In this document: positions 5,949 through 30,426 of the stretch, piece by piece | How the letters are laid out: each line of letters starts with the position of its first letter | Numbering within the stretch: the stretch's first letter is position 1 | Source of the DNA: Gammaproteobacteria bacterium | GTDB taxonomy: Bacteria > Pseudomonadota > Gammaproteobacteria > Xanthomonadales > Xanthomonadaceae | Assembly (NCBI GenBank): GCA_026398715.1 | Contig: JAPLSI010000034.1 | Coordinates: 1 to 30,426 of the forward strand | Direction of reading: 5' to 3' | DNA length: 30,426 nucleotides | Translations under genes and position numbers: made by a program | The notes under the pieces: model-generated | Database searches by the model: none | What the model was told of the DNA's origin: nothing | What the model saw: only the letters and a program-made list of their open reading frames with translations

Positions 5949-6094
5949 CGGAGGATTCCATTCGGGCCAGCGCGGCAGGCTAGTGGGTCGGATGGCGAGC
6001 ATGCAATCCGTACAAGCACCCGAGTAGATTTACGTAAGCCTCCGACGCAACTCGTGCAGTGCGTCGCATTTGGAAAATCCTTGGGTTCAGGTTG

Positions 6095-6940: not shown

Positions 6941-6967
6941 TGCGCGGCGGGTTACTCTGGCTGGCAG

Positions 6968-8973: not shown

Positions 8974-9010
8974 GCCGCCTATTGTGCCTTCACACCGCCC
9001 GCTTTTTCAT

Positions 9011-13274: not shown

Positions 13275-13282
13275 TTCCCCAC

Positions 13283-13300
13283 GCTGCCGTCATCGGCAGC
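13283..13300. terminator. Hairpin between converging M4 and protease-remnant genes
   Basis: GCTGCCG-TCAT-CGGCAGC is a perfect seven-base-pair stem with a four-base loop, nine bases after the M4 stop. The T-run of a classical terminator is missing in both directions, so it may act weakly or protect the transcript end. The stop codon of the minus-strand protease remnant lies in its loop. Confidence 0.5.
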
Positions 13301-13694
13301 CAGGACCGCCAGCGATGCACGCCCCTACCCAGGCGTTGAATTTCGCGACGCGGGTGTAAACGCCGACCTTGTCCACGTGTGCACAGCCGTCCCCCCAGCT
13401 GACTATTCCGGCCAAGGTCGGCGTCCTTTTTCCGTCGATGTCCACATCGATGGTCAGCGGACCTCCGCTATCGCCCTGGCAGGCGTCCCTGCCGCCCGCG
13501 GGATAGCCCGCGCAGATCATGTTGATGCTGATCGCGCCATCGTAGGCCAGCGCGCGGTTGCAACTGCGCCGCAGCATCTGCGCCGCATCGACCAGCGCGC
13601 CGGGCAATGCGGCCAGGCGCGAATAGCCGGCGTTGCCGACCACCAACGCCCATCGCCCAGGCTCGGACTCGGCCAGGTAATCGGCCGCGATCAA
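13290..13694 (-). pseudogene. C-terminal half of a trypsin-like (S1A) serine protease
   Basis: The translation carries the second half of a chymotrypsin-fold protease: [20 protein letters not shown] with the catalytic Ser (residue 76 counted from a TTG at 13694), the Asp six residues before it that gives trypsin specificity, then [10 protein letters not shown] and [14 protein letters not shown]. The half with the catalytic His and Asp, the activation site and any signal peptide is absent. Upstream, the frame runs into the 3' end of the membrane-protein gene, and the only plausible start is a TTG overlapping that gene's stop (TTGA). An S1 protease normally needs about 220-250 residues in this domain, so an active enzyme is not expected. 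It is most simply a deletion remnant; a translated fragment without activity cannot be excluded. Confidence 0.75.
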
Positions 13695-15022: not shown

Positions 15023-16023
15023 GACCAGTCGTAGCGCCGGGCCCAATCCGCCTGCGCGGTGTTGCCGGCCGCGCTGGCCACGTGCGGCGCCGACGCTTCG
15101 GGCACCAGGCCCTGCGCCTGCTGTGCGCGCTTCACGTAATCCTGGTACTGGCTTATCGCGATGGCGGCGAGGATCGCCAGGATCGGCACCATCAGCATCA
15201 CCAGCAGGAACACCACCAGGCAACCGGACATGCCGCGCTTCTGGCGGTCCGGGAATTCCGTGTAGGCCCACTTGTCCACCACCAGCGTGCTGGCGACCAT
15301 GTCGTGCAGGGCGCGCTTGCGGTCGGTGAAGGCCGCCATCAGGAAGCCGATGTACAAGGTGATGTATGACAGCGCCGCGGCGAACCATCGGCCCAGCGCG
15401 TGGCCGAAGCTCAGGCGATGTCCCGACTCGTCTGTGACCTTGATGCCCAGCGCCATCTTGCCCAGCGTCGCCTGGCTGGCGGAGCTTTCCATGCCGGCGT
15501 AATACAGCGGCTTGGCCAGGAATATCACCAGGTAGTAGACCGCCTGGAAGGTGCCTGACTGGCTGGACGTGAGCAGGTCGCCGCCGGTCATGGCCATGCC
15601 CAGCACCAGGGCCAGGATCGCGATCGGAATACCGAGGATCAGCGAGTCGAGGAAGTACGCGGCCCAGCGGCGAACGAAGCCGGCATAGACGATATCGGTC
15701 GAATGCGATCGTACTTCCACCGACGCTTCAGGTGCGCGATACGGATTGGCTTCGTTCCAGCCCATCGGGCGCGGCGCGTCTGGTGGAAGCGGCGCAAGTT
15801 CGAGTTCGGGCGGCGCCTGCGGTGGCGGCGGAATACCGTAGGGGTTGGACGCGCCAAGTTCGGCGCCGAGTTGCGAGATCGGCAGCCAGCCAGGCATGCC
15901 TTCGCGCCAGGCCAGGCTGGCACTGCCGGCGCGTCCGCTGGCGAGTGCATTGCGAACGTCGGCCGCAGTGACCGGTCCGACCTGCACGCCGGCAGTGTCG
16001 GTGTAATACCAGATATCGCTCAT
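15019..16023 (-). CDS. GYF_2-RDD membrane protein with pilin-like C-terminal helix
   Basis: A 334-residue composite protein. Residues 1-50 are a GYF_2 (DUF4339) module: WYYTDTAGVQVGPVTAADV and WREGMPGWLPI. A Pro-rich linker (PPPPQAPPE) leads to an RDD transmembrane domain (about 110-250), with the expected Arg and Asp in FVRRWAAYFLDSLILG and TDRKRALHDMVASTLVV. After it, residues 268-305 form a long hydrophobic helix, VPILAILAAIAISQYQDYVK, that strongly resembles the start of a mature type IV pilin. The ATG at 16023 has AGGGG upstream. It is the first gene of a pair, and its stop overlaps the start of the TPR-like membrane protein. RDD proteins have been linked to ion transport and other membrane roles; the function here is unknown. 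Confidence 0.88.
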   Translation of the reverse strand: MSDIWYYTDTAGVQVGPVTAADVRNALASGRAGSASLAWREGMPGWLPISQLGAELGASNPYGIPPPPQAPPELELAPLPPDAPRPMGWNEANPYRAPEASVEVRSHSTDIVYAGFVRRWAAYFLDSLILGIPIAILALVLGMAMTGGDLLTSSQSGTFQAVYYLVIFLAKPLYYAGMESSASQATLGKMALGIKVTDESGHRLSFGHALGRWFAAALSYITLYIGFLMAAFTDRKRALHDMVASTLVVDKWAYTEFPDRQKRGMSGCLVVFLLVMLMVPILAILAAIAISQYQDYVKRAQQAQGLVPEASAPHVASAAGNTAQADWARRYDWS

Positions 16024-16093
16024 GCCATCCCCTGATTCTTCCCTGCGCCCACACTAGTGGCTGCGGGACCGCGGGACAAGGGCTGTTGCTGGC

Positions 16094-16753
16094 TCAGTCT
16101 TTTTCGAAGGCCGCGATTTCATCCAACACGGCTTGCGCCGAGCGCAGGCTTTTTCCGGTGACGCTGTCTTCCACTGCCTTGGCACGATGCGGGTGCCTGG
16201 GATTGAGCGACCAGCGGTGGAACGCCCAGGTAGCCGCCAGGCCGAGCAGGCCGATGATCGTGCCGAAGACGAACACCAGCGGCGCATTTTCGTACATGTT
16301 CACGCCAGTGCCGGACTTCACCAGCACCGCCATGATCGGCATCCACAGGAACCACCAGGGCAGGCCGGCCCACAGGCCGCTGCGGATGCGGAAGTGGCGC
16401 AGGCTGCCCAGTTGTTTCTGCAGCGCCATCACCGGCGCCGCGTGGTCGATGGCCTTCATGCGGCTTAGCGTGACGCCAGCGGTGATGATCAAGGCCACGC
16501 CATAGATATGCAGCATGAGGCCCGACAACGCCATCGACCACTCCGGGAGTTGGCCGGCCCAGAAATTTGCGGCAGGCAGTATCACCAGCGCACCGAGAAC
16601 GATCTGCGCGACCTGGCCCCAGAACAGTGGCCGCAGCCGACGATTCAGCTGGTCGAGCTTGCGCTCGCGGAAGGCCTGCATCTGCAGGCGATTGCTGGTT
16701 TCCAGGCGCTGGTCGAGGCTTTGCCAGGCGGATTTGAGTTCGTCGAGTTCCAT
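16094..16753 (-). CDS. Membrane protein paired with ECF sigma factor (possible anti-sigma factor)
   Basis: A 219-residue protein that starts with a charged amphipathic helix (MELDELKSAWQSLDQRLETS) and continues with four hydrophobic segments in two pairs (near 42-62, 72-96, 138-160 and 165-186), then a short charged tail. No zinc-anti-sigma motif is present. It lies 48 bases downstream of the sigma factor on the same strand, where a regulator of the sigma factor is usually found, so a role as membrane anti-sigma factor is the best guess; the N-terminal cytoplasmic helix would be the contact region. The family is not one I can name, and the role is an inference from position. Confidence 0.75.
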   Translation of the reverse strand: MELDELKSAWQSLDQRLETSNRLQMQAFRERKLDQLNRRLRPLFWGQVAQIVLGALVILPAANFWAGQLPEWSMALSGLMLHIYGVALIITAGVTLSRMKAIDHAAPVMALQKQLGSLRHFRIRSGLWAGLPWWFLWMPIMAVLVKSGTGVNMYENAPLVFVFGTIIGLLGLAATWAFHRWSLNPRHPHRAKAVEDSVTGKSLRSAQAVLDEIAAFEKD

Positions 16754-16801
16754 GATGGCTCCGGTGAAGCGGTGAAAGGGGATGGCAGGCGCGCGACGCG
16801 C

Positions 16802-17320
16802 TCAGGCAAGTTCGCTGCGAAGGCGTTGTCGCAGGCGGCTCAATTTGGTGGTGACGTTGCTTTCGCCGATGCCGAGGATCTCGGCGATCTCGCGGGTGCT
16901 GCGTTCTTCCAGGTACAGCACCAGCAGCGCGCGATTGAGGGGGTCCAGGCGCTGGATCACCGCGTGCAATGCACGCATGCCGATATCGCTTTCCGGTTGC
17001 GGCGTGTTGGGGTCGGGTGCGTCGTGCAGGCTTTCGTCCAGCGGCACGGTGTGCCGGCGATTGCGCGACGCGATCCGGAATTCGGAGATCGCCACGTTCA
17101 GCGCGATGCGATACATCCAGGTCGAGAACGACCGCGCCTCGTCGTAAGCGGGATAGGCGCGCCAAAGTTGCGTCGCGATCTCCTGCGCAAGGTCGGCGCG
17201 ATCCTCGACGCTGGTGGCATAGCTGGCTGCGACCTTGAAGACGATCTTGCGATGCGTCTGCAACAGCGCATCGAAGGTCTCGCGGGCGTCAGCGATGGCG
17301 GGGTTCATGGCCAGTTGCAT
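16802..17320 (-). CDS. ECF-type RNA polymerase sigma factor
   Basis: A 172-residue sigma-70 factor with regions 2 and 4 only, normal for the extracytoplasmic-function group. Region 2 reads DRADLAQEIATQLWRAYPAY and FSTWMYRIALNVAISEFR; region 4 reads LDPLNRALLVLYLEERSTRE and IAEILGIGESNVTTKLSRLR. The ATG at 17320 has AGGGAT nine bases upstream; an in-frame ATG four codons later is possible. It is co-oriented with the membrane protein 48 bases downstream. The upstream region holds GGTTGTGACAAACC (minus strand, 17379-17392), which could be part of an autoregulated promoter, but no matching -10 is clear. Confidence 0.93.
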   Translation of the reverse strand: MQLAMNPAIADARETFDALLQTHRKIVFKVAASYATSVEDRADLAQEIATQLWRAYPAYDEARSFSTWMYRIALNVAISEFRIASRNRRHTVPLDESLHDAPDPNTPQPESDIGMRALHAVIQRLDPLNRALLVLYLEERSTREIAEILGIGESNVTTKLSRLRQRLRSELA

Positions 17321-17390
17321 GGTGCGGCATCCCTGGGGCGTTTGCGCCTGTCAGGAATGTGATTCGCTGGGGGGCACGGTTTGTCACAAC

Positions 17391-17408
17391 CGGCCGCCCT
17401 TGCGGCCG
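17391..17408 (-). terminator. Hairpin after the alpha/beta hydrolase gene
   Basis: On the minus strand CGGCCGC-AAGG-GCGGCCG forms a perfect seven-base-pair stem with a four-base loop, starting eight bases after the hydrolase stop. It is followed by GTTGTGAC rather than a T-run, so termination is plausible but not certain. It would separate the hydrolase from the sigma-factor unit. Confidence 0.45.
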
Positions 17409-17415
17409 AGCCCGG

Positions 17416-18183
17416 TCAGGGCCGATCGCCGCGCAGCAGCACGAGGTAGCGGCCCGATTGCGCAATCGAGTTGTGGCCGGCGCCGGGAATCACTTCCAGG
17501 CGCGCGACGCCTTGCCTGAATCGGCCCAGCAACTTTCGTGTACTGGCGCGTGGAATCACCTCGTCGTGTTCGGCTTCCATCAACAGGGTCGGCGCGCTGA
17601 CTTTTGGTGCGTAGCGCCAGCTTTCGTATTTGTCGATCAGCAGCCAGCGCACCGGCATCCACGGATACAGGTCGGCGGCGATGTCCTGCAGGCTGTCGTA
17701 GGGCGTTACCAGCACGAGGCGGGCGACATTGCGCTGGCTGGCGACGCGCACGGCCAGTCCACTGCCCAGGCTGCGGCCGATCACCGTCACGCGGCCATGC
17801 GCCTTGTGCACGAGGTCGAACAAGGCCAGCGCGTCCTTCGCCAGGCCCGCTTCGGTCGGCTCGCCGGCGCTGCCGCCGTAACCCCGGTAGTGCAGCAGGT
17901 AGATCGCGTGGGTCGGAAAGGCCGCCGCGAAGTCGGGCAGGTTGCGCGAAACGTCCTCGGCGTTGCCGCCGAAATAGACCAGCGCGTCGGGGCCGACGGA
18001 CTCGCGAACGCTGATGCGGATGCCGGCATCGGTGCCGTCCAGCATACGCATGCTGGCCTCGGCGCCGGCCGCAGCAGGCTGCGGGTAGTACATGAGGGTG
18101 CGTTGTTTCGAATACAGGACCGCGCACAACACCCCATAGACCACCAGCACGAATCCCAGCAGGGCCAGCAACAACTTGCGCAT
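17416..18183 (-). CDS. Membrane-anchored alpha/beta hydrolase (BEM46/ABHD-like)
   Basis: A 255-residue serine hydrolase with an N-terminal hydrophobic helix (LLLALLGFVLVVYGVLCAVL) that anchors it or serves as an uncleaved signal. The fold is shown by VYFGGNAEDV (oxyanion loop), the nucleophile elbow VIGRSLGSGLAV, the acid in MEAEHDEVIP and the catalytic His in GAGHNSIAQSG. This pattern matches the BEM46/ABHD12-13 group, whose members are lipases, thioesterases or peptidases of mostly unknown substrate. The ATG at 18183 directly precedes the hydrophobic core. It is divergent from the M1 aminopeptidase; a 42-base compound inverted repeat lies in the shared upstream region. Confidence 0.88.
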   Translation of the reverse strand: MRKLLLALLGFVLVVYGVLCAVLYSKQRTLMYYPQPAAAGAEASMRMLDGTDAGIRISVRESVGPDALVYFGGNAEDVSRNLPDFAAAFPTHAIYLLHYRGYGGSAGEPTEAGLAKDALALFDLVHKAHGRVTVIGRSLGSGLAVRVASQRNVARLVLVTPYDSLQDIAADLYPWMPVRWLLIDKYESWRYAPKVSAPTLLMEAEHDEVIPRASTRKLLGRFRQGVARLEVIPGAGHNSIAQSGRYLVLLRGDRP

Positions 18184-18239
18184 GGTCGTCAGTTCCTGAA
18201 TCCGCCCGACTGCGAGTGTAAGGCGGAGCGGGCAGGATC

Positions 18240-18281
18240 GTGAACTGCGTAACAGTCCCGCGCATGTGACTGGCAGTTCAC
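18240..18281. repeat. Compound inverted repeat in the hydrolase/M1 promoter region
   Basis: GTGAACTGC (18240-18248) pairs perfectly with GCAGTTCAC (18273-18281), and inside it CAGTC (18253-18257) pairs with GACTG (18268-18272), leaving a four-base bulge and a ten-base loop. It covers a possible -35 (CTGGCA at 18270, 17 bases before TACACT at 18293) for the aminopeptidase, so it could be an operator or a cruciform-like control site. Confidence 0.55.
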
Positions 18282-18327
18282 TTCGCGGCGATTACACTCG
18301 GGGACTTGCCCGTCCCGATGGAATCCC

Positions 18328-21016: not shown

Positions 21017-21571
21017 TTATCGGGTCGCCGCCGTCGATATCGCGACGGTGGCGCACTCGGCATCGGCCAGGCGATTGCTGCCGGCCGGGCAGGCGCCGTA
21101 GTCCTTCAGTTCGAATTGCAGCGTGCCGGCGGCCGTGCTCGGCGCACGCGCGCTGGCCAACTGGAAGCGCGACTTGCCCGACGTCGACTTCAGCTCGAAC
21201 TCGATGGTGACTTCGCCGGCCCAGACGCATTGCACGTCCTTCGGGCAGCGGCTGTCGTTGACCACGCGCAGGAAGCGCAATTGCGCACCCGGCGCGACGG
21301 TGGCTTCATCGCCGTAGCCCAGGACCACGGTGCCGGACGTCGGGGCTGGCGGCGCATCCGGTGTCGGAGCCGGCGGCGGTGCAGGTGTGGGTGTCGGTGC
21401 CGGTGCCGGTGTCGGCGATTGCGTGACGGCATTGCCGCCCGAAGCGGCGGCGCCATCATCGGCGGCCGCGCGGCTCGGCGATTGGCAGGCGGCGAGGCTC
21501 AACAGGACGGCGAGCGCGATCAGGGTCTTGCCGGGGCGGCGAATCGAATCGTGAACACACAGGCTTGGCAT
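21017..21571 (-). CDS. Proline-rich linker lipoprotein of unknown function
   Basis: A 184-residue predicted lipoprotein. Its signal region has core ALAVLLSLAAC, giving a lipobox LAAC. After a short polar stretch comes a low-complexity Pro/Ala/Thr linker of about 25 residues (PAPAPTPTPAPPPAPTP), which probably spans the peptidoglycan. The C-terminal domain of about 110 residues is beta-rich with four Cys (SRCPKDVQCVWAGE, YGACPAG, DAECAT) that may form disulfides; CxxxxxCVWAGE-like segments occur in small secreted proteins of unknown role. The ATG at 21571 is used because the frame upstream of it runs antisense through the transporter gene. No strong ribosome site is seen. It is divergent from the POT transporter. 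Confidence 0.78.
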   Translation of the reverse strand: MPSLCVHDSIRRPGKTLIALAVLLSLAACQSPSRAAADDGAAASGGNAVTQSPTPAPAPTPTPAPPPAPTPDAPPAPTSGTVVLGYGDEATVAPGAQLRFLRVVNDSRCPKDVQCVWAGEVTIEFELKSTSGKSRFQLASARAPSTAAGTLQFELKDYGACPAGSNRLADAECATVAISTAATR

Positions 21572-21677
21572 GGTCGTGTCGTCCCGGAGGGTGATGGCCA
21601 ATGATAGCCCCGCATCTCCCGGGGTTGCGCCATGCTGATGCCGCGACGTACCGCGCGACGCGAAAAGGTGGAAACCG

Positions 21678-21712
21678 GGTGGGGGATGGTGGCATTGTTG
21701 CCGAACCCCACC
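21678..21712 (+). promoter_or_regulatory. Leader hairpin before the POT transporter
   Basis: GGTGGGG (21678-21684) pairs with CCCCACC (21706-21712), and inside it GGCA-TTGT-TGCC forms a second perfect stem. The structure ends 18 bases before the transporter's ATG, which has no clear Shine-Dalgarno sequence, so it may affect translation. Confidence 0.4.
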
Positions 21713-21730
21713 GCCACCCATCGTGACCGC

Positions 21731-23350
21731 ATGAGCCAAAGCGCCGCTTCCCCAGCCACCGACGCGGCGCGACTGCCCCGCCAGATTCCCTACATCATCG
21801 GCAACGAAGCCTGCGAGCGCTTCAGCTTCTACGGGATGCGCAACATCCTGGTGCAGTTCCTGGTCAGCAGCGTCATCCTGGCCTATATCCCTGCCGATGC
21901 GCGCGAAGGCGCGGCGAAGGACATCTTCCACAGCTTCGTGATTGGCGTGTACTTCTTCCCGCTGCTCGGTGGCTGGCTGTCTGACCGGTTCTTCGGCAAA
22001 TACAACACGGTGATGTGGTTCTCGCTGATCTACTGCGCAGGCCATGCCTGCCTGGCGATGTTCGACGACAACAAGAACGGCTTCTATACGGGCTTGTTCC
22101 TGATCGCGTTGGGATCGGGCGGCATCAAGCCGCTGGTGGTGTCCTTCGTCGGCGACCAGTTCACCCGCGACAACAAGCACCTGGCCAAGATCGTCTTCGA
22201 CGCGTTTTATTGGACGATCAACTTCGGTTCCTTTTTCGCCTCCTTGCTGATGCCCTTGTTCCTGCGCAGCTACGGGCCGGCGGTGGCGTTCGGCATTCCC
22301 GGCGTGCTGATGTTCGTCGCCACCATCATCTTCTGGATGGGCCGCAAGCAGTACGTGCGCGTGCCGCCGACCCGCGGCGAAGACCCGCACTCCTTCTACA
22401 ACGTCGCGCGCACCGCGCTGACCACGCAGGCGCCGGGCAAGGGCCGCAACGGTTTCCTGGTCGCGGTGTTCGGCGCCGCGTTGGCGGTGGGCATGTTGCT
22501 GTGCTGGGCGATCAAGCCCGGTTTCTGGCCGGAGGATTTCGGCTTCGTCATCACGGCCTGCCTGGCGCTGGGTTCGCTGATCGCCTTCGGCGGCATCGGC
22601 ACGTCCATGCAGCTCGAACGCGCCCGCGGCGCGCATCCCGATGCGGCGGTGGATGGCGTACGCGCGGTATTGCGCATCATCATCGTGTTTGCGCTGACCA
22701 CGCCGTTCTGGTCCTTGTTCGACCAGAAGGCATCGACCTGGGTGCTGCAGGGCAAGACCATGGTCATTCCGCATGACGTGTGGTGGTGGCCGAGCTTCCT
22801 GGTGAAGGATGCCGGCCAGATGCAGGCGCTGAATCCGATCCTGGTGCTGATGCTGATCCCGTTCAACAACGTGGTGCTGTATCCGTGGCTGCGACGCATG
22901 GGTTTCGAGCCGACCGCGTTGCGGCGGATGGGCGCGGGCATCGCCTTCTCGGGCATTGCCTGGATCGTTGCGGGCGCCATCCAGCTGAGCATCGACGCCG
23001 GCGCACCGGTGTCGCTGGCCTGGCAGATCGCGCCGTATGCGTTGCTGACCTTCGGCGAAGTGCTGGTTTCGGCCACCGCGCTGGAATTCGCGTACAGCCA
23101 GGCGAGTGGTTCGATGAAGGGCGTGATCATGGCCTTCTGGTACCTGGCCAGCACCTTCGGCAGCCTGTGGGTGTTGCTGACCAACGCCAGCGTGCGCAAC
23201 CCGGCGGTGATCGAGCGCATCGCCAGCACCGGGCTGAGCGAAAACGCCTTCCTGATGTTCTTCTTCGCGGGCTTCGCCTTCGTGGCGGCGGCGGTGTTTG
23301 CCTGGTATGCGCGCAGCTATCCGATGCAGGACAATTACCGGGCGGCTTGA
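21731..23350 (+). CDS. POT-family proton-dependent oligopeptide transporter
   Basis: A 539-residue inner-membrane symporter of the proton-dependent oligopeptide (PTR2/POT) family, with about 12-14 hydrophobic segments. The family's proton-coupling motif ExxER is visible as NEACERFSFYGMRNIL (Glu26, Glu29, Arg30). FFPLLGGWLSDRFFGKYN and LIALGSGGIKPLVVSFVGDQ match the two POT signatures. The ATG at 21731 is chosen since it leaves a short cytoplasmic tail before helix 1; upstream in-frame starts at 21632 and 21686 would add atypical residues. It should import di- and tripeptides, such as products of the nearby exported peptidases. A decayed copy of its 3' end lies at 27564-27633 in the same orientation. 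Confidence 0.94.
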   Translation: MSQSAASPATDAARLPRQIPYIIGNEACERFSFYGMRNILVQFLVSSVILAYIPADAREGAAKDIFHSFVIGVYFFPLLGGWLSDRFFGKYNTVMWFSLIYCAGHACLAMFDDNKNGFYTGLFLIALGSGGIKPLVVSFVGDQFTRDNKHLAKIVFDAFYWTINFGSFFASLLMPLFLRSYGPAVAFGIPGVLMFVATIIFWMGRKQYVRVPPTRGEDPHSFYNVARTALTTQAPGKGRNGFLVAVFGAALAVGMLLCWAIKPGFWPEDFGFVITACLALGSLIAFGGIGTSMQLERARGAHPDAAVDGVRAVLRIIIVFALTTPFWSLFDQKASTWVLQGKTMVIPHDVWWWPSFLVKDAGQMQALNPILVLMLIPFNNVVLYPWLRRMGFEPTALRRMGAGIAFSGIAWIVAGAIQLSIDAGAPVSLAWQIAPYALLTFGEVLVSATALEFAYSQASGSMKGVIMAFWYLASTFGSLWVLLTNASVRNPAVIERIASTGLSENAFLMFFFAGFAFVAAAVFAWYARSYPMQDNYRAA

Positions 23351-23386
23351 TTCAAGCCGGGGCGGCCACGCATGGCCAAGTGTTCC

Positions 23387-24094
23387 CTACAAACTCAGCA
23401 TCTCCTTCAGCCGGAGACTCTGCCTGCGCGACACTTCCACTTCCCCGCCGCCCTTCAAAGTCAGCTGTAATCCGCCGCTACGCCAAGGCGCGATTTGCTC
23501 AACGTAGCCAAGGTTGACCAGGTGGCTGCGGCTGGCCCGGAAAAACATCGCCGGATCCAGTTGCGCTTCGACCGCGCCCAGGGCGCGATACACCATTGGC
23601 GAGTGCGTCCCAAAATACAGGCGGCTGTAGTTGCCAACGGCCTCGATCAAGCGAATTTCCCGCGGCTTGACCAACCAGCAGCGTTCGCCATCCTTCACGT
23701 AGATCGGAGCATCAGGTGATCGTGCAATCGAAACACGCTGGGGTTCGAGATCCAGTTTGCCGATGGCGCGGGCCAGGCGATCCGGCTCGATCGGTTTGAG
23801 CAGGTAGTCGATCGTGGTGCTGACATCAAATGCCTGCAATGCGAACTGCTGATACGCGGTGGTGAAAATGACTTGCGGCACACGCTCCAGTTTGGCCAAC
23901 AGATCGAACGCATTGCCGCCGGGCAGATCAACATCGAGAAAGACCAGCCCAGGCGCCACGCGGTCGATCAGCTCGACGCCGCTATCGACGTCGGCTGCCT
24001 GGCCGACGACACGTATCTGCGGATGCGCCTTGAGCTGATGCTCAAGCTCGAAGCGTGCCAGTTCCGAATCCTCGATGATGACGGCGTCGATCAC
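23387..24094 (-). CDS. LytTR-family response regulator
   Basis: A 235-residue two-component regulator. The receiver domain (1-120) has the acidic pair in VIIEDSELAR (Glu8, Asp9), the phosphorylated Asp54 in VFLDVDLPGG, the switch Thr in IFTTAYQQFAL and the Lys in DYLLKPIEPDRL. The C-terminal LytTR DNA-binding domain (about 135-235) has REIRLIEAVGNYSRLYFG and FFRASRSHLVNLGYVEQI. Its ATG overlaps the stop of the kinase gene as ATGA, so the two are translationally coupled. Base composition is lower in G+C than upstream genes (30 of 60 in 23821-23880). It is the last gene of a probable four-gene unit that starts with the serine hydrolase. Confidence 0.94.
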   Translation of the reverse strand: MIDAVIIEDSELARFELEHQLKAHPQIRVVGQAADVDSGVELIDRVAPGLVFLDVDLPGGNAFDLLAKLERVPQVIFTTAYQQFALQAFDVSTTIDYLLKPIEPDRLARAIGKLDLEPQRVSIARSPDAPIYVKDGERCWLVKPREIRLIEAVGNYSRLYFGTHSPMVYRALGAVEAQLDPAMFFRASRSHLVNLGYVEQIAPWRSGGLQLTLKGGGEVEVSRRQSLRLKEMLSL

Positions 24095-25125
24095 GTTGTT
24101 CCCTCCAGACGCAAGCTTGCCAACACGTATTCACCATCCTGTCGTAGCTCAAAGCGCCCTGCGCTGCCGAAGCCGAGCTTCAATCGCTGTTCCAGATTAT
24201 TCAATCCCGTGCCAGTGCTCAGCGCGCGTTCGCGAAGCGTGCCGGTGTTGCGCACATCCAGCTGCAGGCAACTGCCGACCCTCCGTACTTCCACGCGGAG
24301 CTCGCCCGGTGCTGGCGTCAAGCCAAGGCCATGCTTGATGCCATTCTCAACCAACAATTGCAAAGAATGCCTGGGAACTTGCATCGATAGCGTTGCTGCT
24401 TCGATTTGCTCGCTGTATTGCAAACGGGTGCCCAATTGCAGGCGTAGCAGATCGACGTAGTCGCGCACGATCGCCATTTCTTCGGCAACCGACACCAGCG
24501 GAGAGTCGTATTGGTTGAACTGGTAACGAAGTGTCGAGGCGAACTTGCCGAGCATCGTTCGCGCGGCGTCGGCATCCTTAAGAACGAGCGCACGAATATT
24601 ATTGATCGCATTGAACATGAAATGCGGGCCAAGGTGTCCGAGCAAAGCCTGCAACTGGGCGTCCTTCAACGCCAGCAGCAGCTCGCTTTGGGCAATCGTC
24701 GCACGGCGCAGGCTTTGCTGCCGGCTCAAGGCAACGTATAGAAGGCTCCACAGGAAATAGGCAATCAGCAACAAGGGTACGCGCGCCAGCAGCGGCTGGT
24801 TCCCATGCAGGGTAGCGAACGAAGGGTCAACAAACGAGAGTGCCCATAGGCCGGAACGAAAACAAAAATCGACAAGCACTGCTGTTGCGAGGCTGCAAAC
24901 CGCGACGAGGGCCAGCATCCGAAACTCGCTCATGCGGGCTGTCTGGGCGCGGCGATAAGCCATGCGCAGGCCGAGGCTGCCGATCACGCCCAGCGCGCTG
25001 AGCGCAAGCGCCAACGCCACTCCCGAGATGCCCGCCACGGGTGCGTCGGTGGGTTCCGCGGCCAACTGCAGCAACGTGAATGCGAGCCAGCCGACGGACT
25101 GCAACAACCAGAAACGCTTGTCCAT
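24091..25125 (-). CDS. LytS/YehU-type sensor histidine kinase
   Basis: A 344-residue membrane kinase. The first 140 residues hold about four hydrophobic helices and no recognisable extracytoplasmic sensor. The His_kinase domain follows with GHLGPHFMFNAINNIRAL (phospho-accepting His168) and then an ATPase domain with the N box LLVENGIKHGLGL and the glycine box GTGLNNLEQRL. The ATG at 25125 has AGGAAG five bases upstream; an earlier in-frame start at 25212 would overlap the hydroxylase gene and is rejected. It phosphorylates the LytTR regulator next to it. The 71-base gap to the hydroxylase gene suggests one transcript; membrane lipid state is a possible signal, but this is a guess from context. 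Confidence 0.92.
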   Translation of the reverse strand: MDKRFWLLQSVGWLAFTLLQLAAEPTDAPVAGISGVALALALSALGVIGSLGLRMAYRRAQTARMSEFRMLALVAVCSLATAVLVDFCFRSGLWALSFVDPSFATLHGNQPLLARVPLLLIAYFLWSLLYVALSRQQSLRRATIAQSELLLALKDAQLQALLGHLGPHFMFNAINNIRALVLKDADAARTMLGKFASTLRYQFNQYDSPLVSVAEEMAIVRDYVDLLRLQLGTRLQYSEQIEAATLSMQVPRHSLQLLVENGIKHGLGLTPAPGELRVEVRRVGSCLQLDVRNTGTLRERALSTGTGLNNLEQRLKLGFGSAGRFELRQDGEYVLASLRLEGTT

Positions 25126-25196
25126 CCATCTTCCTGCAAGTAATCGAAACAGGTTACACGATGCCCGGCTAACTCGGCGCTGTTCAAACGTCGAGA

Positions 25197-26072
25197 TCAG
25201 CCGCGGCAGCACGGAGGCTTGACCATGGACGCCAGCTGCGAAAAGTAGCCGCTTGCCCCCGGGTAGGTCGAACCAGGCGAGGCGAACAAGCCAACGGCTT
25301 TGTTTTCACTGAAGCCTTCTGCGCCTTTGAAAGTGCCAAAAACATGATCCCAAAGTAGAAACGCATTGCCGAAATTGCGATCTGCTTCGTGCGCTTGTGT
25401 CGAGTGATGCCAACGATGCACTTCAGGGGTACTGAACACCCGGTTGAGCCAGCCATGTCGCAAGTCGATATTGGCATGCTGCACCAGCACGACCGGCTGG
25501 GTAATCGCCAGATAAGCAAGGATTGCCTCCGGCGCAACACCAAGAAGCATCACGGGAAATACTGCCAGCGTAAAGTTGATGGAGTAATTCAATGGGTGGA
25601 AGCGCAGGCCGTTGAGAAAATACATACGCTCGCTGCTGTGGTGCAAGGCATGTAGCCACCAAAGAGGCGCAAATTCGTGATGAAGTCGATGTGACCAGTA
25701 CTTTCCAAACTCGACCACAAGCACGACAAACAGGATTTGGTGCCAAAGCGCCCACTCGGCAAGCAGGGGTTTCGCACCGAAACCTGCATACAAGGCAATC
25801 ACTCCAAGTGGGGCTGCAATCTTGAACAGCGGTTCGATGAAACCTGCGAGCACGGCCGCACTGGTGAGGTCTGTCGCCAGATCACCCTGGTTGGCATTCC
25901 ATTGCCTGCGATAGGGCAATTTCCGTTCCAGGACCCATGCAACTATCAGCGTCAGGATCGACGAAGCCAAAATGACGAACTCCAGCTGCACGCCGGTCTT
26001 CCACGCCATGCCGTAGAGCAAAAGGGACATTACGACGAGCATCAATACCAGGTAACGCTGAATCAGAAGCAT
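25197..26072 (-). CDS. Sterol-desaturase/fatty-acid-hydroxylase family di-iron membrane protein
   Basis: A 291-residue integral membrane protein of the fatty acid hydroxylase superfamily. Its three histidine clusters for the di-iron centre are SHRLHH (His128, 131, 132), HALHHSSE (His141, 144, 145) and HRWHHSTQ (His219, 222, 223), with an extra His in VQHANIDLRHG. Four or more hydrophobic helices surround them, and NFGNAFLLWDHVFGTF near the end is a family signature. It should use oxygen to hydroxylate or desaturate a membrane lipid; the alkylglycerol-monooxygenase-like spacing suggests an ether or acyl chain, but the substrate is unknown. G+C content is clearly lower than in neighbours (27, 29 and 28 of 60 in 25321, 25561 and 25681 lines). 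It begins 13 bases after the serine hydrolase stop. Confidence 0.92.
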   Translation of the reverse strand: MLLIQRYLVLMLVVMSLLLYGMAWKTGVQLEFVILASSILTLIVAWVLERKLPYRRQWNANQGDLATDLTSAAVLAGFIEPLFKIAAPLGVIALYAGFGAKPLLAEWALWHQILFVVLVVEFGKYWSHRLHHEFAPLWWLHALHHSSERMYFLNGLRFHPLNYSINFTLAVFPVMLLGVAPEAILAYLAITQPVVLVQHANIDLRHGWLNRVFSTPEVHRWHHSTQAHEADRNFGNAFLLWDHVFGTFKGAEGFSENKAVGLFASPGSTYPGASGYFSQLASMVKPPCCRG

Positions 26073-26085
26073 GTGATTGGCCTTG

Positions 26086-27447
26086 TCATTCAGTGCCGGT
26101 GCTGTCGCCCATCAAGCGGCTATGTACCGTCATCGTACGTTTGCCGTCACTGCTGCGCGCGAAGCTCAGGTGGTCCAGGCTTTCGCCCAGGTAGTAGCGA
26201 CCATCGGCGCCGGCGATTACCGGCACCGGTTTGTCGCCTTGCTGAAGCAATACCAGATTGCCAGCATCGAGTTTCAACTCGCGAACATCGCTTTTGTCGA
26301 ACTTATAACTACCAAGCCAGGCCGATCTGTCGGCGTTCTTCGCCGGCTTCCTGTCGAAAGGCCTGCCCAGCGCAATGGCGGCAAGCTCGACGGCGAAATC
26401 GTCAGGCCAGAATTGCTCGGAGTTGGTCAGCACCGAGACGTAGATGTTCTTTTCAGGAACACGCAGAGTGTAGGTGGAAAATCCGTTGATGAAGCCGCTA
26501 TGTTCGTTGCTGCCTTCACCTTGCACTTGCGACACCGCCCAGCCGAATCCATAGGGCATGCGGCTGCCATCTTTCAAAGTGACCTTGCTGAATGCCTGCG
26601 CCATCAAGGCCCTGTCGACCAGGCGGCCCTCGGACAAGGCGGCGTGCCAGCGATCCAGGTCATCAACGCTACTGATCAATGCCCCGGCGCCCTGCGGTTG
26701 CGTCATGCTGATGAAATCCGCGTTCTGCAGCTTTCCCTTGACCAGGCGGTAGCCATGCGCGCGGCCCGGCACCAACTCGGTGTGGCTGCCGAATCGGGTA
26801 GCGGACATCGACAGTGGCGCGAACACCGCCTTGTGCATGTAATCGGCGTAAGCGCTGCCGCTCGCCATCTCGATAACGCGGGTCAGCAGGATGTAGTTGG
26901 AGTTGCTGTACTCGAAGCGCGAACCGGGTTCGAATTCCAGCGGCAGATCCTTGAAGTAGGCGATCAGTTCGTCGACGCTGGCTTCATTGCGGCGTGCGGC
27001 ACGTGATTCGGCGATCCTGCTGATGTTCTTGACGCCCGAGGTGTGGGTGAGTAGCTGACGCAGGCTCACTTTGGCCAGTGCCGGCGGCAAGTGGGTCAAC
27101 ACGTCGCCAACGGGCTGATCGAGTTGCAGTTTTCCTGCCTGCACCAGTTGCAGCACGGCGAACGCGGTGAACTGCTTGGTCACCGAGGCCAGCGGCAATA
27201 CCTTGTCCGCGGTCATCGGCACTTTGTTCTCCACGTCGGCCAGTCCAAATCCTGCCCGCAGCAGGATCTGGTCGCCCTTGCGCACCAGCACCACGCCGCC
27301 TGGTTCGGCACCGGAGAAGAAACTCTTGGCGCGATCTTGCAGTTGCGAGTGCAATTCGGCGGATGATTGAGCGCCGGCAAGTGCGGGAAAGGACAACGCA
27401 ATGGCCAGGGCCAGGCGCGGAAGATGGGTGGCTGCGAAGAGTGTCAT
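26086..27447 (-). CDS. Exported serine hydrolase of the beta-lactamase/DD-peptidase fold
   Basis: A 453-residue penicillin-binding-protein-like hydrolase. The ATG at 27447 has GGAG six bases upstream and opens a signal peptide (MTLFAATHLPRLALAIALSF, ending ALAGAQ). The catalytic motifs are SVTK (Ser88, Lys91), YSN (Tyr180) and HSG (His316, in place of the usual KTG), as in class C-like esterases and D-aminopeptidases. A C-terminal lipocalin-like extension (WLGSYKFDKSD, DHLSFARSSDGKRT) is common in the esterase branch. It acts in the periplasm on a peptide, ester or lipid that cannot be named; resistance to beta-lactams should not be assumed. It is first in the four-gene minus-strand unit with the hydroxylase and LytTR pair. 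Confidence 0.93.
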   Translation of the reverse strand: MTLFAATHLPRLALAIALSFPALAGAQSSAELHSQLQDRAKSFFSGAEPGGVVLVRKGDQILLRAGFGLADVENKVPMTADKVLPLASVTKQFTAFAVLQLVQAGKLQLDQPVGDVLTHLPPALAKVSLRQLLTHTSGVKNISRIAESRAARRNEASVDELIAYFKDLPLEFEPGSRFEYSNSNYILLTRVIEMASGSAYADYMHKAVFAPLSMSATRFGSHTELVPGRAHGYRLVKGKLQNADFISMTQPQGAGALISSVDDLDRWHAALSEGRLVDRALMAQAFSKVTLKDGSRMPYGFGWAVSQVQGEGSNEHSGFINGFSTYTLRVPEKNIYVSVLTNSEQFWPDDFAVELAAIALGRPFDRKPAKNADRSAWLGSYKFDKSDVRELKLDAGNLVLLQQGDKPVPVIAGADGRYYLGESLDHLSFARSSDGKRTMTVHSRLMGDSTGTE

Positions 27448-27715
27448 GTTTTGCTCCACTGGTGAGGTGGAGCCGAGATTGGCGCGGGCCGTTGTGCATT
27501 ACGAACGGTTTATGACTAGCGGTGCAAGCGGCCTGCCAACGGTCGGTGAAGCGGATGGGCGCTCGCCAGCACCGGGCTGGGCGAGGGCGCCTTCCGGATG
27601 TTCTTCTTCGGAGGCTTCGCCTTCGTGCCGGTGGCCGGCGGCCATGCCCCCGCGGGCGCAGTTTTCATACTAAGGTAGGCTGGTCGCGCCGTGGGGCGTG
27701 CCCAGGGGGGACCCC
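27448..27715. other. Intergenic region with a transporter remnant
   Basis: About 270 bases lie between the serine hydrolase and the small membrane protein gene. The left part holds the hydrolase promoter region, including ACCGTTCGT on the minus strand (27509-27501), which fits the LytTR half-site consensus. The right part holds the decayed POT 3' end. No other coding potential is visible. Confidence 0.6.
27541..27678 (+). pseudogene. Decayed 3' fragment of a POT transporter gene
   Basis: Bases 27564-27633 match 23221-23290 of the intact POT gene at 61 of 70 positions without gaps by hand alignment. The frame translates as ASTGLGEGAFRMFFFGGFAFV, compared with ASTGLSENAFLMFFFAGFAFV in the transporter, then diverges and stops at 27678. 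A stop codon lies just upstream in frame, and no start or ribosome site is present, so it cannot be a gene. It is in the same orientation as the intact copy, 4343 bases away, and the lower-GC four-gene unit lies between them. Confidence 0.8.
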
Positions 27716-28459
27716 ATGATCCTACGCAAGCTGACCCAGGCCCTGCGCGAGCAGAACTGGACCGCCATCGTCATCGAGTTCGTGCTGCTGGTCAGCGGCG
27801 TTTTCCTCGGCCTGCAGGTCTCGACCTGGAACGAGGAACGCCGGGATCGCGTGCTGGCGCACCAGTACCTGGAGCGGCTGCGGGAGGACTTCTCGCAGTC
27901 GGTCGCTGGCGCTGAAATCAGCATCGAGAACATGGAACTGCAGGCCAGCAGGGCCACGCTGATGCTGGACCGCCTGCGCGCCTGTCGCCTGGAGGAGGGT
28001 TCCCAGCACGCCGAGTTCGCTGCCGGCCTCTACGTGCTCGGCAGGCTCGAACCGCCAACGCTGACCCGCGGAACGATGGACGAACTGCGCTCCACCGGGC
28101 GACTGGGCATCATCCGCAGCGTCAGGCTGCGCCAGGGACTTTCCAACGTCCTCCAGCAGCAGGAGCGCACGGTGGGGGTCTTCGGTTTTCTCGTCGCCCG
28201 GCGAACGGCTCAGCTTGCCTACATCGATGCCAGGACTACGATCCTGGTGCCGCAGGAAAAGGGCGCCACGAACGACCCGGGGCCGGGCGAAGTCCTGTTC
28301 GACTTCCCGGCCTTGTGCAGGGACCCGGCCTACATCAGCGCTGTGTCGCACCTGCGCCAGATAGCCTACGTGGTGATCCGGCAGAACCACAGGCTGCTGA
28401 AGGAGTACCGCGCGATGGAAGACCTGCTCGACGCCGAACTGGGCAAGGCCCACCGATGA
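27716..28459 (+). CDS. Small single-span membrane protein of unknown function
   Basis: A 247-residue protein. The ATG at 27716 follows a strong purine-rich ribosome site (AGGGGGGA). It opens with a short basic amphipathic helix (MILRKLTQALREQNW), then one transmembrane segment (AIVIEFVLLVSGVFLGLQV) ending STWNEERRDR. The remaining 200 residues are predominantly helical with many charged residues and probable coiled-coil stretches (HQYLERLREDFSQSV), and lie outside the membrane. Proteins with this N-terminal pattern are frequent in Xanthomonadales, but I know of no assigned role. The TldD-like gene follows 18 bases downstream, so it may be a partner or anchor of that exported protein. Confidence 0.82.
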   Translation: MILRKLTQALREQNWTAIVIEFVLLVSGVFLGLQVSTWNEERRDRVLAHQYLERLREDFSQSVAGAEISIENMELQASRATLMLDRLRACRLEEGSQHAEFAAGLYVLGRLEPPTLTRGTMDELRSTGRLGIIRSVRLRQGLSNVLQQQERTVGVFGFLVARRTAQLAYIDARTTILVPQEKGATNDPGPGEVLFDFPALCRDPAYISAVSHLRQIAYVVIRQNHRLLKEYRAMEDLLDAELGKAHR

Positions 28460-28477
28460 GCCTTTTAAAGGATGGCA

Positions 28478-30109
28478 ATGCGCAGGCGTGAATTCATGCA
28501 ATACGGCGGGCTTGGCGCCGCCGCGCTGGCGCTGCCCGGCTTCGCCCGCGCGATTGCGGCCGAAGACCTGCTGGCGACGATGGACCCGGGCATCAAGAAG
28601 GCGATCGCCGATACGGCGATGACAGCGGCCACCGCAGCAGGCGCGAGTTATTGCGACGTGCGCGTCGGCCGTTACCTCAACCAGTCGATCCTGACCCGCG
28701 AAGACAAGGTGCAAAGCATTGGCAACACCGAATCGGTGGGCGTGGGCATCCGCGTGATCGCCAACGGCACCTGGGGCTTTGTCGCCACCAGCCAGCTCGA
28801 CAGCGCCAGCGTCGCCGCTGCCGCGCGCAATGCGGTCGCCGTGGCGCGGGCCAACTCGCGTGCGCAGACCTCGCCGGTGGTGCTGGCGCCGACGCCGGGC
28901 GTGGGCGAGGTGTCATGGCGCACGCCGATCGTGAAGAATGCGATGGCCGTGCCGGTGAAGGACAAGGTTGACCTGCTGCTGGGCGTGAACGCCGCCGCCA
29001 TCAATGCCGGCGCGAACTTTGCTGCCTCGCGCCTGTTCGTGGTGAACGAGCAGAAATATTTCGCGTCCACCGATGGTTCGTACATCGACCAGGACGTGCA
29101 TCGCATCTGGGCGCCGTTCACCGTGACGGCGATCGACAAGGCCAGCGGCAAGTTCCGCACCCGCGACGGGCTGTCGTCACCGATGGGCATGGGTTTTGAA
29201 TTCTTCGATGCCGATCCGTCCGGGCGAATCGCCTTGCCGGCTGGCGTCGTTGCGTATGGCCGCAGCTACGACATGGTTGCCGATGCGATTGCCGCGGCGA
29301 AGCAGGCGCGCGAAAAACTCACCGCGCCGGCGGTAAAGCCGGGCAAGTACGACCTGGTGCTGGACCCGACGCATCTGTTCCTGACCATCCACGAATCGGT
29401 CGGCCATCCGCTCGAGCTCGATCGGGTGCTGGGCTACGAGGCCAATTACGCCGGCACCAGTTTCGCCACGCTGGACAAGCGCGATGCGAAATTCGCCTAT
29501 GGCAACCAGCGGGTGAATTTCTTTGCCGACAAGACCCGGCCCGGTTCGCTGGGTGCCGTCGGCTATGACGACGAAGGCGTGAAGACAAAACAGTGGGACC
29601 TGGTGAAGGACGGCATCCTGGTCAACTACCAGGCCACCCGCGACCAGGCGCACCTGATCGGCGAAAGTGCCTCGCATGGTTGTTCGTACGCCGACTCCTG
29701 GTCGAGCGTGCAGTTCCAGCGCATGCCGAATGTGTCGCTGGCGGCGGGGTCGTCGCCGCTGTCGGTGGAAGAAATGATCAAGGATGTCGAGAACGGCATC
29801 TGGTTCCTGGGTCGCGGTTCGTACTCGATCGACCAGCAGCGCTACAACGCGCAGTTCGGCGCGCAGCTTTATTACGAGATCAAGAACGGCAAGGTCACCC
29901 GCATGCTGGAGGACGTGGCCTACCAGATCCGTACGCCGGAATTCTGGAATGCCTGCAGTGCGATCTGCGATGAGCGCGATTTCAGGCTCGGTGGTTCCTT
30001 CTTCGACGGCAAGGGCCAGCCCGGCCAGGTGTCGGCGGTGTCGCATGGTTCCAGCACGTCGCGCTTCGATGGCATCAATGTGATCAGCACGGCGCGCAGC
30101 CTGGGCTGA
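28478..30109 (+). CDS. Tat-exported TldD/PmbA-family metalloprotease
   Basis: A 543-residue TldD-like protein. The start at 28478 is favoured over an ATG six bases earlier because AAAGGA then lies five bases upstream. The N-terminus has a twin-arginine signal (RRREFMQYGGLGAAALAL, ending FARAIAA). The TldD domains follow with REDKVQSIGNTESVGVGIRV and the zinc motif HESVGHPLE (His305, Glu306, His310). Near the end NACSAICDERDFRLGGS has Cys493 and Cys497, one of which may be the third zinc ligand. E. coli TldD is cytoplasmic and works with TldE on microcin and antitoxin peptides, so export is a notable difference. It is about 480 residues in E. coli; here the excess includes the signal. A paralogue starts 150 bases downstream. 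Confidence 0.92.
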   Translation: MRRREFMQYGGLGAAALALPGFARAIAAEDLLATMDPGIKKAIADTAMTAATAAGASYCDVRVGRYLNQSILTREDKVQSIGNTESVGVGIRVIANGTWGFVATSQLDSASVAAAARNAVAVARANSRAQTSPVVLAPTPGVGEVSWRTPIVKNAMAVPVKDKVDLLLGVNAAAINAGANFAASRLFVVNEQKYFASTDGSYIDQDVHRIWAPFTVTAIDKASGKFRTRDGLSSPMGMGFEFFDADPSGRIALPAGVVAYGRSYDMVADAIAAAKQAREKLTAPAVKPGKYDLVLDPTHLFLTIHESVGHPLELDRVLGYEANYAGTSFATLDKRDAKFAYGNQRVNFFADKTRPGSLGAVGYDDEGVKTKQWDLVKDGILVNYQATRDQAHLIGESASHGCSYADSWSSVQFQRMPNVSLAAGSSPLSVEEMIKDVENGIWFLGRGSYSIDQQRYNAQFGAQLYYEIKNGKVTRMLEDVAYQIRTPEFWNACSAICDERDFRLGGSFFDGKGQPGQVSAVSHGSSTSRFDGINVISTARSLG

Positions 30110-30112: not shown

Positions 30113-30151
30113 GGCAGGGCGGCCGGATACGGGCTGCGGACCCCCCCTGCC
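30113..30151 (+). terminator. Possible weak terminator between the two TldD-like genes
   Basis: GGCAGGG (30113-30119) pairs with CCCTGCC (30145-30151) across a 25-base loop and is followed by TTTCGTC. The loop is long and the T-run short, so it may reduce rather than stop read-through. It starts four bases after the stop of the first TldD-like gene. Confidence 0.3.
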
Positions 30152-30259
30152 TTTCGTCACTTGACGGCCCTTTGGCGGCATCGTCACAGTCGGGCGGACA
30201 ACAATCTGGCTCGGCGCCGCGTCTTGCGATGCCGGCCAGGCCATCCGGGGAGGTTCGCA

Positions 30260-30426
30260 GTGGATAGACGAGATTTCATGCAGTTCACAGGCTTCGGGCT
30301 CGCCGGCCTGATGCTTCCCGGCTTCGGCCACGCGGTCGCCGCCGAGGTACTGGTCAGCACGATGGACGTGGGCCTGAAGAAGGCCATTGCCGACGCCGCG
30401 CTCAATGCCGCCACCGCCGCCGGCGC
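30260..30426 (+). CDS. Second Tat-exported TldD/PmbA-family protein (5' end only)
   Basis: The first 55 codons of a paralogue of the preceding gene. The GTG at 30260 has GGGGAGG six bases upstream. The Tat motif reads DRRDFMQFTGFG, followed by a hydrophobic stretch ending AVAA. About 36 of 55 residues are identical to the upstream protein over the aligned N-terminus, including STMDVGLKKAIADAALNAAT. The rest lies beyond the right edge, so it cannot be seen whether it keeps the zinc motif (TldD-like) or lacks it (TldE-like). The 150-base gap before it includes a possible weak terminator. Confidence 0.85.
   Translation, partial: MDRRDFMQFTGFGLAGLMLPGFGHAVAAEVLVSTMDVGLKKAIADAALNAATAAG

What the first reader, a model, noticed from the sequence alone, without database searches (positions are those of the whole stretch)
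23221..27633. Lower-GC four-gene unit bracketed by direct repeats of a transporter 3' end
The intact POT gene's 3' part (23221-23290) recurs at 27564-27633 in the same orientation at 61/70 identity, and a serine hydrolase, di-iron lipid hydroxylase, LytS kinase and LytTR regulator lie between them. Several sampled 60-base lines there have 27-30 G+C, against about 42 in the POT gene. This looks like an acquired block that entered by recombination at the POT 3' end, or a decayed tandem duplication with a later insertion. The four genes share strand and short gaps, so they may form a lipid-modification system controlled by its own two-component pair.
Basis: partly seen in the sequence, partly recalled or inferred. 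Interest (0 to 1): 0.7.

Follow-up and report, generated by a model that had tools for sequence, protein, structure and literature searches.

The report
Acquired self-regulated hydrolase–hydroxylase operon
A four-gene block (a two-component switch, an exported serine hydrolase and a membrane lipid hydroxylase) was inserted behind a transporter gene, leaving a decayed copy of that gene's tail at its far end, and it carries a conserved control site through which its own switch probably turns it on.

Summary
In detail: 61/70 identity (64/73 over 23220-23292 / 27563-27635), with no third such match in the window. The block averages 57.8% G+C against 65.3% outside. The closest relative found (L001, POT 98% aa) is a natural empty site: POT is followed 26 nt later by the membrane protein, then TldD. 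The right-hand copy begins a decayed second POT tail (27559 to about 27715) that has lost coding constraint. Three of the genes form a conserved module: kinase, LytTR regulator and serine hydrolase stand together in 8 of 8 orthologous loci read from other genomes, with the hydrolase convergent to the pair. All 8 carry a 20-nt-period triple direct repeat 75-78 nt before the hydrolase ATG, with LytTR-site geometry. The window has two of the repeats intact; the third is cut by the insertion junction. In the window the hydrolase has moved to the front of the operon and a di-iron lipid hydroxylase has been added, so the operator probably controls all four genes, the switch included. Gain by recombination that duplicated the POT tail is well supported; route, signal and substrates are inferred. 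New variant of a known kind; moderate interest.

The parts
21632..23350 (+). Intact POT-family oligopeptide/H+ symporter gene; insertion target
   Evidence: PF00854 236 bits; 94% nt identical to L001 POT without gaps; differences 17/6/81 by codon position 1/2/3
23220..23292 (+). Left copy of the direct repeat, inside the intact POT 3' part
   Evidence: D1
23387..24094 (-). LytTR response regulator
   Evidence: PF04397 72.4 bits, PF00072 53.5 bits
24091..25125 (-). LytS-type histidine kinase, 344 aa, overlaps the regulator gene by 4 nt
   Evidence: PF06580 64.7 bits (on the 373-aa ORF); start as in P0121
25197..26072 (-). Membrane fatty-acid-hydroxylase-superfamily protein (ornithine-lipid-hydroxylase-like, di-iron type)
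   Evidence: PF04116 96.4 bits; NCBIfam OlsE 159.4 bits, cut-off 475; His motifs invariant in 10 of 10 aligned
26086..27447 (-). Beta-lactamase-fold (S12-like) serine hydrolase, first gene of the operon; probably exported
   Evidence: PF00144 237.2 bits; S88xxK91, Y180xN182, H316xG318 invariant in 10 of 10 aligned; signal peptide judged by eye
27510..27523 (-). Operator repeat R3 (ACCGCTAGTCATAA), starting 76 nt before the hydrolase ATG
27535..27543 (-). Operator repeat R2 (ACCGTTGGC), starting 20 nt before R3
   Evidence: R2-R3 matrix from 8 other loci: 20.4 here, next best in the window 6.5
27555..27563 (-). Operator repeat R1, degenerate; the insertion junction lies inside it
   Evidence: R1 part scores 6.9 vs 15.0-23.3 in 8 loci; junction at 27559
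27559..27715 (+). Decayed second copy of the POT 3' end and spacer; 27563-27635 is the right copy of the repeat
   Evidence: single alignment to L001 from 27559/11578 onward; 8 private changes in 73 nt at codon positions 1,1,2,2,2,3,1,2
27716..28459 (+). Membrane protein of unknown function next to POT in the empty site (start ATG 27716 by comparison with L001)
   Evidence: 89% aa in L001; no Pfam or NCBIfam hit at E<=1e-3
28472..30109 (+). TldD/PmbA-family gene, flank of the empty site

Best explanation
History: in an ancestor with POT, membrane protein and TldD in a row (as in L001), a DNA piece carrying a four-gene operon was joined into the POT 3' end by recombination that duplicated the POT tail. 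Most likely one end paired with POT by homology and the other joined illegitimately (homology-facilitated illegitimate recombination, or a single crossover of a circle carrying a POT tail). POT stayed intact, the second tail decayed at the far end, and the outer join fell inside the distal repeat of the operon's operator. Working: the exported serine hydrolase and the membrane lipid hydroxylase are made under the kinase-LytTR pair. The phosphorylated regulator binds the tandem repeats about 76 nt upstream of the hydrolase gene. Because hydrolase, hydroxylase, kinase and regulator now lie co-directionally behind that operator, the switch also raises its own level. The hydrolase probably cleaves an amide or ester in the periplasm, and the hydroxylase modifies a membrane lipid (an ornithine-lipid-like acyl chain is the best guess). 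Shown by sequence: the interrupted POT-membrane protein junction relative to L001, the decayed tail, conservation of module and operator. Inferred: direction of change (gain), regulator binding, autoregulation, substrates, signal.
For: Empty site in L001 and continuous alignment on both sides. Kinase in 0 of 27 genomes of L001's genus group (L001's own included) at E<=1e-40; the same query found 4 of 398 order genomes at E<=1e-60. Hydrolase at E<=1e-60 in 1 of 27, a 35% paralogue. Hydroxylase in L001's genome at best 39%. Low G+C and GC3. Right POT tail unconstrained. Four other gene-sized indels between window and L001 show at most a 15-nt match between their ends, the unit 65 nt at 89%. Kinase-regulator-hydrolase triad in 4 of 4 kinase-hit order genomes and at all 4 further hydrolase hits. 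Operator: a matrix from 4 loci ranks it first in 4 of 4 loci fetched later (24.3-27.6, next best at most 7.2) and not in a hydrolase paralogue without the pair (L157, best 4.5). The 8-locus matrix gives 20.4 in the window (next 6.5; at most 15.6 in 40 simulated windows) and at most 9.1 in 14 loci of more distant LytTR pairs. Distance to the hydrolase ATG 75-78 nt in 9 of 9 loci. Geometry fits LytTR sites: two repeats of 9-11 nt, 11-13 nt spacer (PMC4847170, passages).
Against: The window's own genome is not held, so other copies cannot be excluded. The only exact empty site is one genome; in the other 79 POT loci examined (the best 80 of 132 were kept) the membrane-protein/TldD neighbours are missing too, so gain versus precise loss in L001 is not polarised by an outgroup with the same neighbours. 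No site in the 73-nt core groups the remnant with window POT or with L001 by a shared derived state. POT identity to L001 shows no step marking a donor segment, so route and donor are open. With the first, 4-locus matrix the margins in the window were smaller (R2-R3 19.4 vs 12.2; R1-R3 20.8 vs 16.2). L001, without the operon, has a chance-level 13.5. Two distant kinase-regulator-hydrolase clusters (L149, L150; hydrolase 28%, co-directional) lack the operator. No binding, expression or enzyme data.
Confidence: 0.66

Rival explanations
1. Remnant of an integrative element that used the POT 3' end as attachment site and has lost its integrase; the 73-nt repeats are attL and attR.
For: Gene 3' end as target, direct repeats at both ends, target gene kept intact.
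Against: No mobility gene among the four genes and no tRNA in the window. PHROG matches: hydrolase (best a minor tail protein with lysin activity, 179 bits), regulator and kinase match phage families over their common domains, the hydroxylase none. In viral contigs no relative of hydrolase or kinase and only a 30% piece of the hydroxylase (close relatives only). The outer end cuts a conserved operator repeat.
Confidence: 0.12
2. A small tandem duplication of the POT tail came first and the operon was inserted later between the copies.
For: Explains the repeat without homology on the incoming DNA (reasoning from the layout).
Against: Two events; the sequence after the intact POT stop does not look like the native spacer (by eye); POT stop to regulator stop is only 36 nt.
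Confidence: 0.12
3. The operon at POT is ancestral and L001 lost it by recombination between the two POT tails.
For: Direct repeats of this size can mediate deletion (general knowledge); it would give the L001 arrangement.
Against: Kinase in 0 of 27 genus-group genomes, low G+C and GC3, and the duplication still has to be explained.
Confidence: 0.1
4. The four genes are an accidental neighbourhood; hydrolase and hydroxylase are not controlled by the pair.
For: No expression data; hydroxylase not found in the triad loci read; the 71-nt hydroxylase-kinase gap could hold its own promoter.
Against: Conserved hydrolase operator with LytTR geometry in 8 of 8 triad loci and, with R1 damaged, in the window; hydrolase-hydroxylase gap only 13 nt.
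Confidence: 0.2

Closest known systems
LytS/LytTR two-component systems (BtsS/BtsR, YpdA/YpdB, AlgZ/AlgR)
   Same: His_kinase (PF06580) + Response_reg-LytTR pair, overlapping genes; direct repeats with an 11-nt spacer upstream of a target, within the 11-13 nt given for LytTR regulators (PMC4847170, passages)
   Different: Below the NCBIfam BtsR cut-off (127.8 vs 246 bits); target is a serine hydrolase, three repeats instead of two; kinase N-terminus (membrane segments, by eye) has no family match, only His_kinase is hit
Beta-lactamase-fold S12 hydrolases (2qmi, D-aminopeptidase 1ei5, DD-carboxypeptidase/transpeptidase 1cef, LACTB 7v21, ClbP 3o3v)
   Same: S-x-x-K, Y-x-N, H-x-G pattern; sequence matches to these chains
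   Different: Pfam domain ends at residue 354 of the 457-aa ORF and about 100 aa with conserved columns follow; gene tied to a LytTR pair
Ornithine lipid hydroxylase OlsE / sterol desaturase family
   Same: PF04116 His-motif membrane hydroxylase; several relatives are named ornithine lipid hydroxylase by a source
   Different: Far below the OlsE equivalog cut-off (159.4 vs 475 bits); the 10 aligned sequences share an invariant C-terminal cysteine; operon context differs from anything I found
3' displacement by homology-facilitated illegitimate recombination (T6SS effector arrays, PMC5361080, passages)
   Same: New genes join at a conserved gene and an older 3' end is left behind downstream
   Different: Here the target is a transporter gene that stays intact, and the cargo is a regulatory/enzyme operon

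Membership tests
LytS/LytTR two-component system | His_kinase (PF06580) and Response_reg+LytTR domains in adjacent genes | tested here: met
LytS/LytTR two-component system | Paired repeats of 9-11 nt with 11-13 nt spacer at a target promoter | tested here: met
   R2/R3 9 nt, spacer 11 nt, in 9 of 9 loci incl. window; geometry from PMC4847170 passages
LytS/LytTR two-component system | Regulator binds these repeats | not testable with these tools
   needs EMSA or footprint
BtsR (equivalog) | NCBIfam score above cut-off | tested here: not met
   127.8 vs 246 bits
S12-like serine hydrolase (beta-lactamase fold) | PF00144 and SxxK / YxN / HxG motifs | tested here: met
Class C beta-lactamase | NCBIfam bla_class_C or named-family cut-offs | tested here: not met
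   69.9 vs 415 bits; all 25 families shown of 49 hit are below their cut-offs
Fatty acid hydroxylase superfamily | PF04116 with conserved His motifs | tested here: met
Ornithine lipid hydroxylase OlsE | NCBIfam equivalog cut-off | tested here: not met
   159.4 vs 475 bits
Integrative element / genomic island with integrase | Integrase or other mobility gene within the block | tested here: not met
   Pfam of all four genes; window 1-18327 was not scanned for families
Homology-facilitated illegitimate insertion | One homologous and one non-homologous junction, target duplication possible | tested here: inconclusive
   non-homologous join at 27559 seen; no donor boundary visible in POT

The most novel reading that the evidence does not exclude
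A scattered but old signalling module (LytS kinase, LytTR regulator, exported serine hydrolase, triple-repeat operator) in which the hydrolase makes or destroys the signal that the kinase reads. In the window it was captured by one-ended recombination and rewired from 'pair activates convergent hydrolase' into a single self-amplifying operon that also modifies membrane lipid.
Probability: 0.2. Interest if true: 0.65.

Novelty: new variant of a known kind. Interest (0 to 1): 0.45.

Why it matters
It gives a concrete, testable regulon for a LytTR system that I did not find described (searches of an open-licence library): operator, target, and a natural experiment in which gene order places the switch under its own operator. 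It also shows how a gene-sized operon can enter a chromosome without visible mobility genes and leave a readable scar.

Tried and rejected
Plasmid origin: no megablast match of 23100-27760; tblastn of the hydroxylase gives only <60% matches in 69 records (best identity among the 20 listed 37.1%). Viral origin: searches found nothing close. RNA element or tRNA: none at gathering threshold in 21500-28500, no tRNA in the window. A single ACCGTT-type AlgR-like box (consensus recalled, not from a call) was dropped in favour of the 20-nt-period repeat, because such boxes are scattered through the loci; the search for that consensus in print listed no paper with it among the 10 shown. The second-best hit of the 4-locus R1-R3 matrix lies inside POT (16.2 at 22784); it falls to 2.2 with the 8-locus matrix and is treated as chance. 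Polarising the repeat by shared derived sites failed. Literature: in the held library 0 papers hold LytTR with 'serine hydrolase', 'histidine kinase' and Xanthomonas, with 'fatty acid hydroxylase', with CubicO, or with 'beta-lactamase family' and Xanthomonas. One search (LytS, LytTR, Xanthomonas, two-component) found 2; I saw passages of PMC5552118, where Xanthomonas is mentioned as lacking YpdA-type homologues, and only the listing of the other. BtsR with 'direct repeat' and yjiY gave 0. Ornithine lipid papers were seen as a listing only. Caveats on the operator: I aligned the first four sites by eye after seeing the window; the four loci L171, L173, L174 and L175 were fetched afterwards and are the true hold-out, but they come from one genus and form two near-identical pairs. 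The 8-locus matrix includes them.
Full report
What was checked. The direct repeat is real: 23220-23292 and 27563-27635, 64 of 73 identical, same strand; the 70-nt stretch of the finding has 9 mismatches, 61/70. A gapless scan of both strands finds no third place at 44 of 73 or better. The block between is less G+C-rich: 31 one-kb windows average 57.8% (max 60.6%), 243 windows outside average 65.3% (min 61.2%). GC3 is 0.73, 0.70, 0.63 and 0.75 for regulator, kinase, hydroxylase and hydrolase against 0.83-0.88 for four flanking genes.

The empty site. 132 genome stretches encode a POT relative; the best 80 were kept. Of these 80, L001 (a gammaproteobacterial metagenome genome, POT 98% aa) has M1 peptidase, POT, the membrane protein and TldD in the window's order and no inserted block; the membrane protein starts 26 nt after the POT stop (sequence). 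At E<=1e-8 none of the 80 matches kinase, regulator or hydroxylase, and two have weak (26% and 31%) hydrolase relatives. In the other 79 the membrane protein and TldD are not matched either, and some of these loci have short flanks. The window–L001 alignment stops at 23346/11709, just before the POT stop, and starts again at 27559/11578, i.e. 131 nt back inside the L001 POT gene, then runs through the membrane protein and TldD. So the right-hand copy is a second POT tail sitting where the original tail would be. Within the 73-nt core the remnant has 8 changes of its own, at codon positions 1,1,2,2,2,3,1,2, whereas window POT and L001 POT differ mostly at third positions (17/6/81). The remnant is therefore free of coding constraint, and this decay also argues against an assembly artefact, which would have given an intact tail. 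In the core the window POT has 1 private change and L001 has 7; no site tells which copy is the older. Four other gene-sized indels between window and L001 show at most a 15-nt match between their ends, the unit 65 nt at 89%.

Absence from relatives. The genome of L001 has no hydroxylase match above 39%; its five kinase matches are 28-31%. In 27 genomes of its genus group, itself included, the kinase is in 0 of 27 at E<=1e-40 and the hydrolase in 1 of 27 at E<=1e-60, a 35% paralogue; the hydroxylase was not searched in that set. In the order the hydroxylase is in 3 of 398 at E<=1e-60 with 47-48% identity and the kinase in 4 of 398 with 47-49%; in the class the hydroxylase is in 2 of 369 with 49%. 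Completeness of these genomes is not told. The closest relatives are metagenome proteins: hydroxylase 80%, kinase 89%, hydrolase 89%; the closest kinase with an organism name in the listing is from an Arenimonas metagenome genome, 70% over 76% of the query.

The conserved module. All four kinase-hit genomes have kinase→regulator followed by a convergent hydrolase (regulator 63-65%, hydrolase 55-56%; L141-L144). Hydrolase searches at E<=1e-100 in two genera (1 of 20 genomes; 6 of 35) added four loci, all beside the pair and convergent; in L175 the kinase and regulator matches are broken into pieces. Two more distant clusters (L149, L150) also hold kinase, regulator and a hydrolase relative (34-36%, 32-34%, 28%), but co-directional. 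In the protein database 11 of the 41 kinase clusters P0122-P0162 have the same longest-contig length as a listed hydrolase cluster (7354, 3909, 53324, 3484, 9327, 52094, 1025808, 137701, 5197712, 16529, 13817), with identities falling roughly together (linkage inferred from length, lists capped at 120 rows). They include Xanthomonas cassavae and a Myxococcaceae genome. The hydroxylase is not in the triad loci read; one contig length (12,064) links a hydroxylase (80%) with a hydrolase (87%).

The operator. Upstream of the hydrolase the eight loci share three direct repeats with a 20-nt period, consensus about [AGC]CCGCTCAT-N11-ACCGYTSGM-N11-ACCRCANGTCAT. R3 starts 75-78 nt before the ATG in L141-L144 and 76 nt in the window; in the four later loci the outermost in-frame ATG downstream of R3 lies at 75 or 76. 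An R2-R3 matrix from L141-L144 finds the site as top hit in the four loci fetched later (24.3-27.6; next best at most 7.2) and not in the paralogue locus L157 (best 4.5). It also ranks the window site first of 60,782 positions (19.4, next 12.2). With all eight loci the window's R2-R3 scores 20.4, next best 6.5; 40 simulated windows reach at most 15.6, and L001 reaches 13.5 at a place with no triad. Fourteen loci of more distant LytTR pairs reach at most 9.1. R1 in the window scores only 6.9 against 15.0-23.3, and the junction with the POT remnant (27559) falls inside it: the incoming DNA was cut within its own operator. The layout fits LytTR sites in general (9-11 nt repeats, 11-13 nt spacer; PMC4847170, passages).

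How it probably works. In the triads the pair can act on a hydrolase that is transcribed towards it. In the window the hydrolase and its operator sit in front, then hydroxylase (13 nt gap), kinase (71 nt gap) and regulator (4 nt overlap), so the operator can drive all four genes and the switch becomes self-amplifying (inference). The hydrolase keeps S88xxK91, Y180xN182 and H316xG318 in 10 of 10 aligned sequences, and its best sequence matches among solved structures are a PBP-related beta-lactamase, D-peptidases, LACTB and DD-carboxypeptidases. The hydroxylase keeps its His motifs in 10 of 10 and an invariant C-terminal cysteine; no solved structure matches by sequence at E<=0.01. A periplasmic peptide or ester cleavage coupled with acyl-chain hydroxylation of an amino lipid is the best guess, not shown.

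How it came. Gain by recombination that doubled the POT tail is the simplest reading. Homology-facilitated illegitimate recombination can leave such tails; the authors of PMC5361080 proposed a mechanism akin to it for effector arrays and called it rare (passages). It has been described in three competent species and in E. coli conjugation (PMC3240628, start of abstract in the listing). POT identity to L001 shows no step that would mark a donor segment, so a near-identical donor, a crossover very near the 3' end, or a circle with a POT tail all remain open.

Verdict. Observation confirmed; interpretation largely right on acquisition and self-control, too strong on 'lipid system'. New variant of a known kind; interest moderate.

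Noticed in passing
27716-28459; L151, L096: The membrane protein next to POT belongs to a family with paralogues in tandem in relatives (eight matches within the 12 kb of L151); matched in 19 of 395 family genomes at E<=1e-20; no Pfam or NCBIfam hit.
   Followed up: partly
28472-30109 and 30144-30426; L001 12514-14142 and 15444-17078: L001 has two TldD-family genes in tandem, with an extra histidine-kinase-like ORF (by eye) between them on the other strand; a second copy appears to begin at the end of the window.
   Followed up: partly
L001 8650-10053: L001 carries a PAS/GAF/GGDEF-like ORF (by eye) just upstream of POT that is absent from the window, so POT is flanked by indels on both sides.
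   Followed up: no
16086-17426: A gene pair resembling an ECF sigma factor and a membrane protein (by eye) is present in the window and absent at this place in L001.
   Followed up: no
L175: In one genome of the genus of G331 kinase and regulator of the triad match only in broken pieces while hydrolase and operator look intact.
   Followed up: no
25200-25215: The hydroxylase and nine relatives carry a C-terminal cysteine motif (C288 invariant in 10 of 10, C289 nearly so); unexplained.
   Followed up: no
P0142: In a Lysobacter metagenome record kinase and regulator form one 591-aa chain, a fusion or a frameshift.
   Followed up: no
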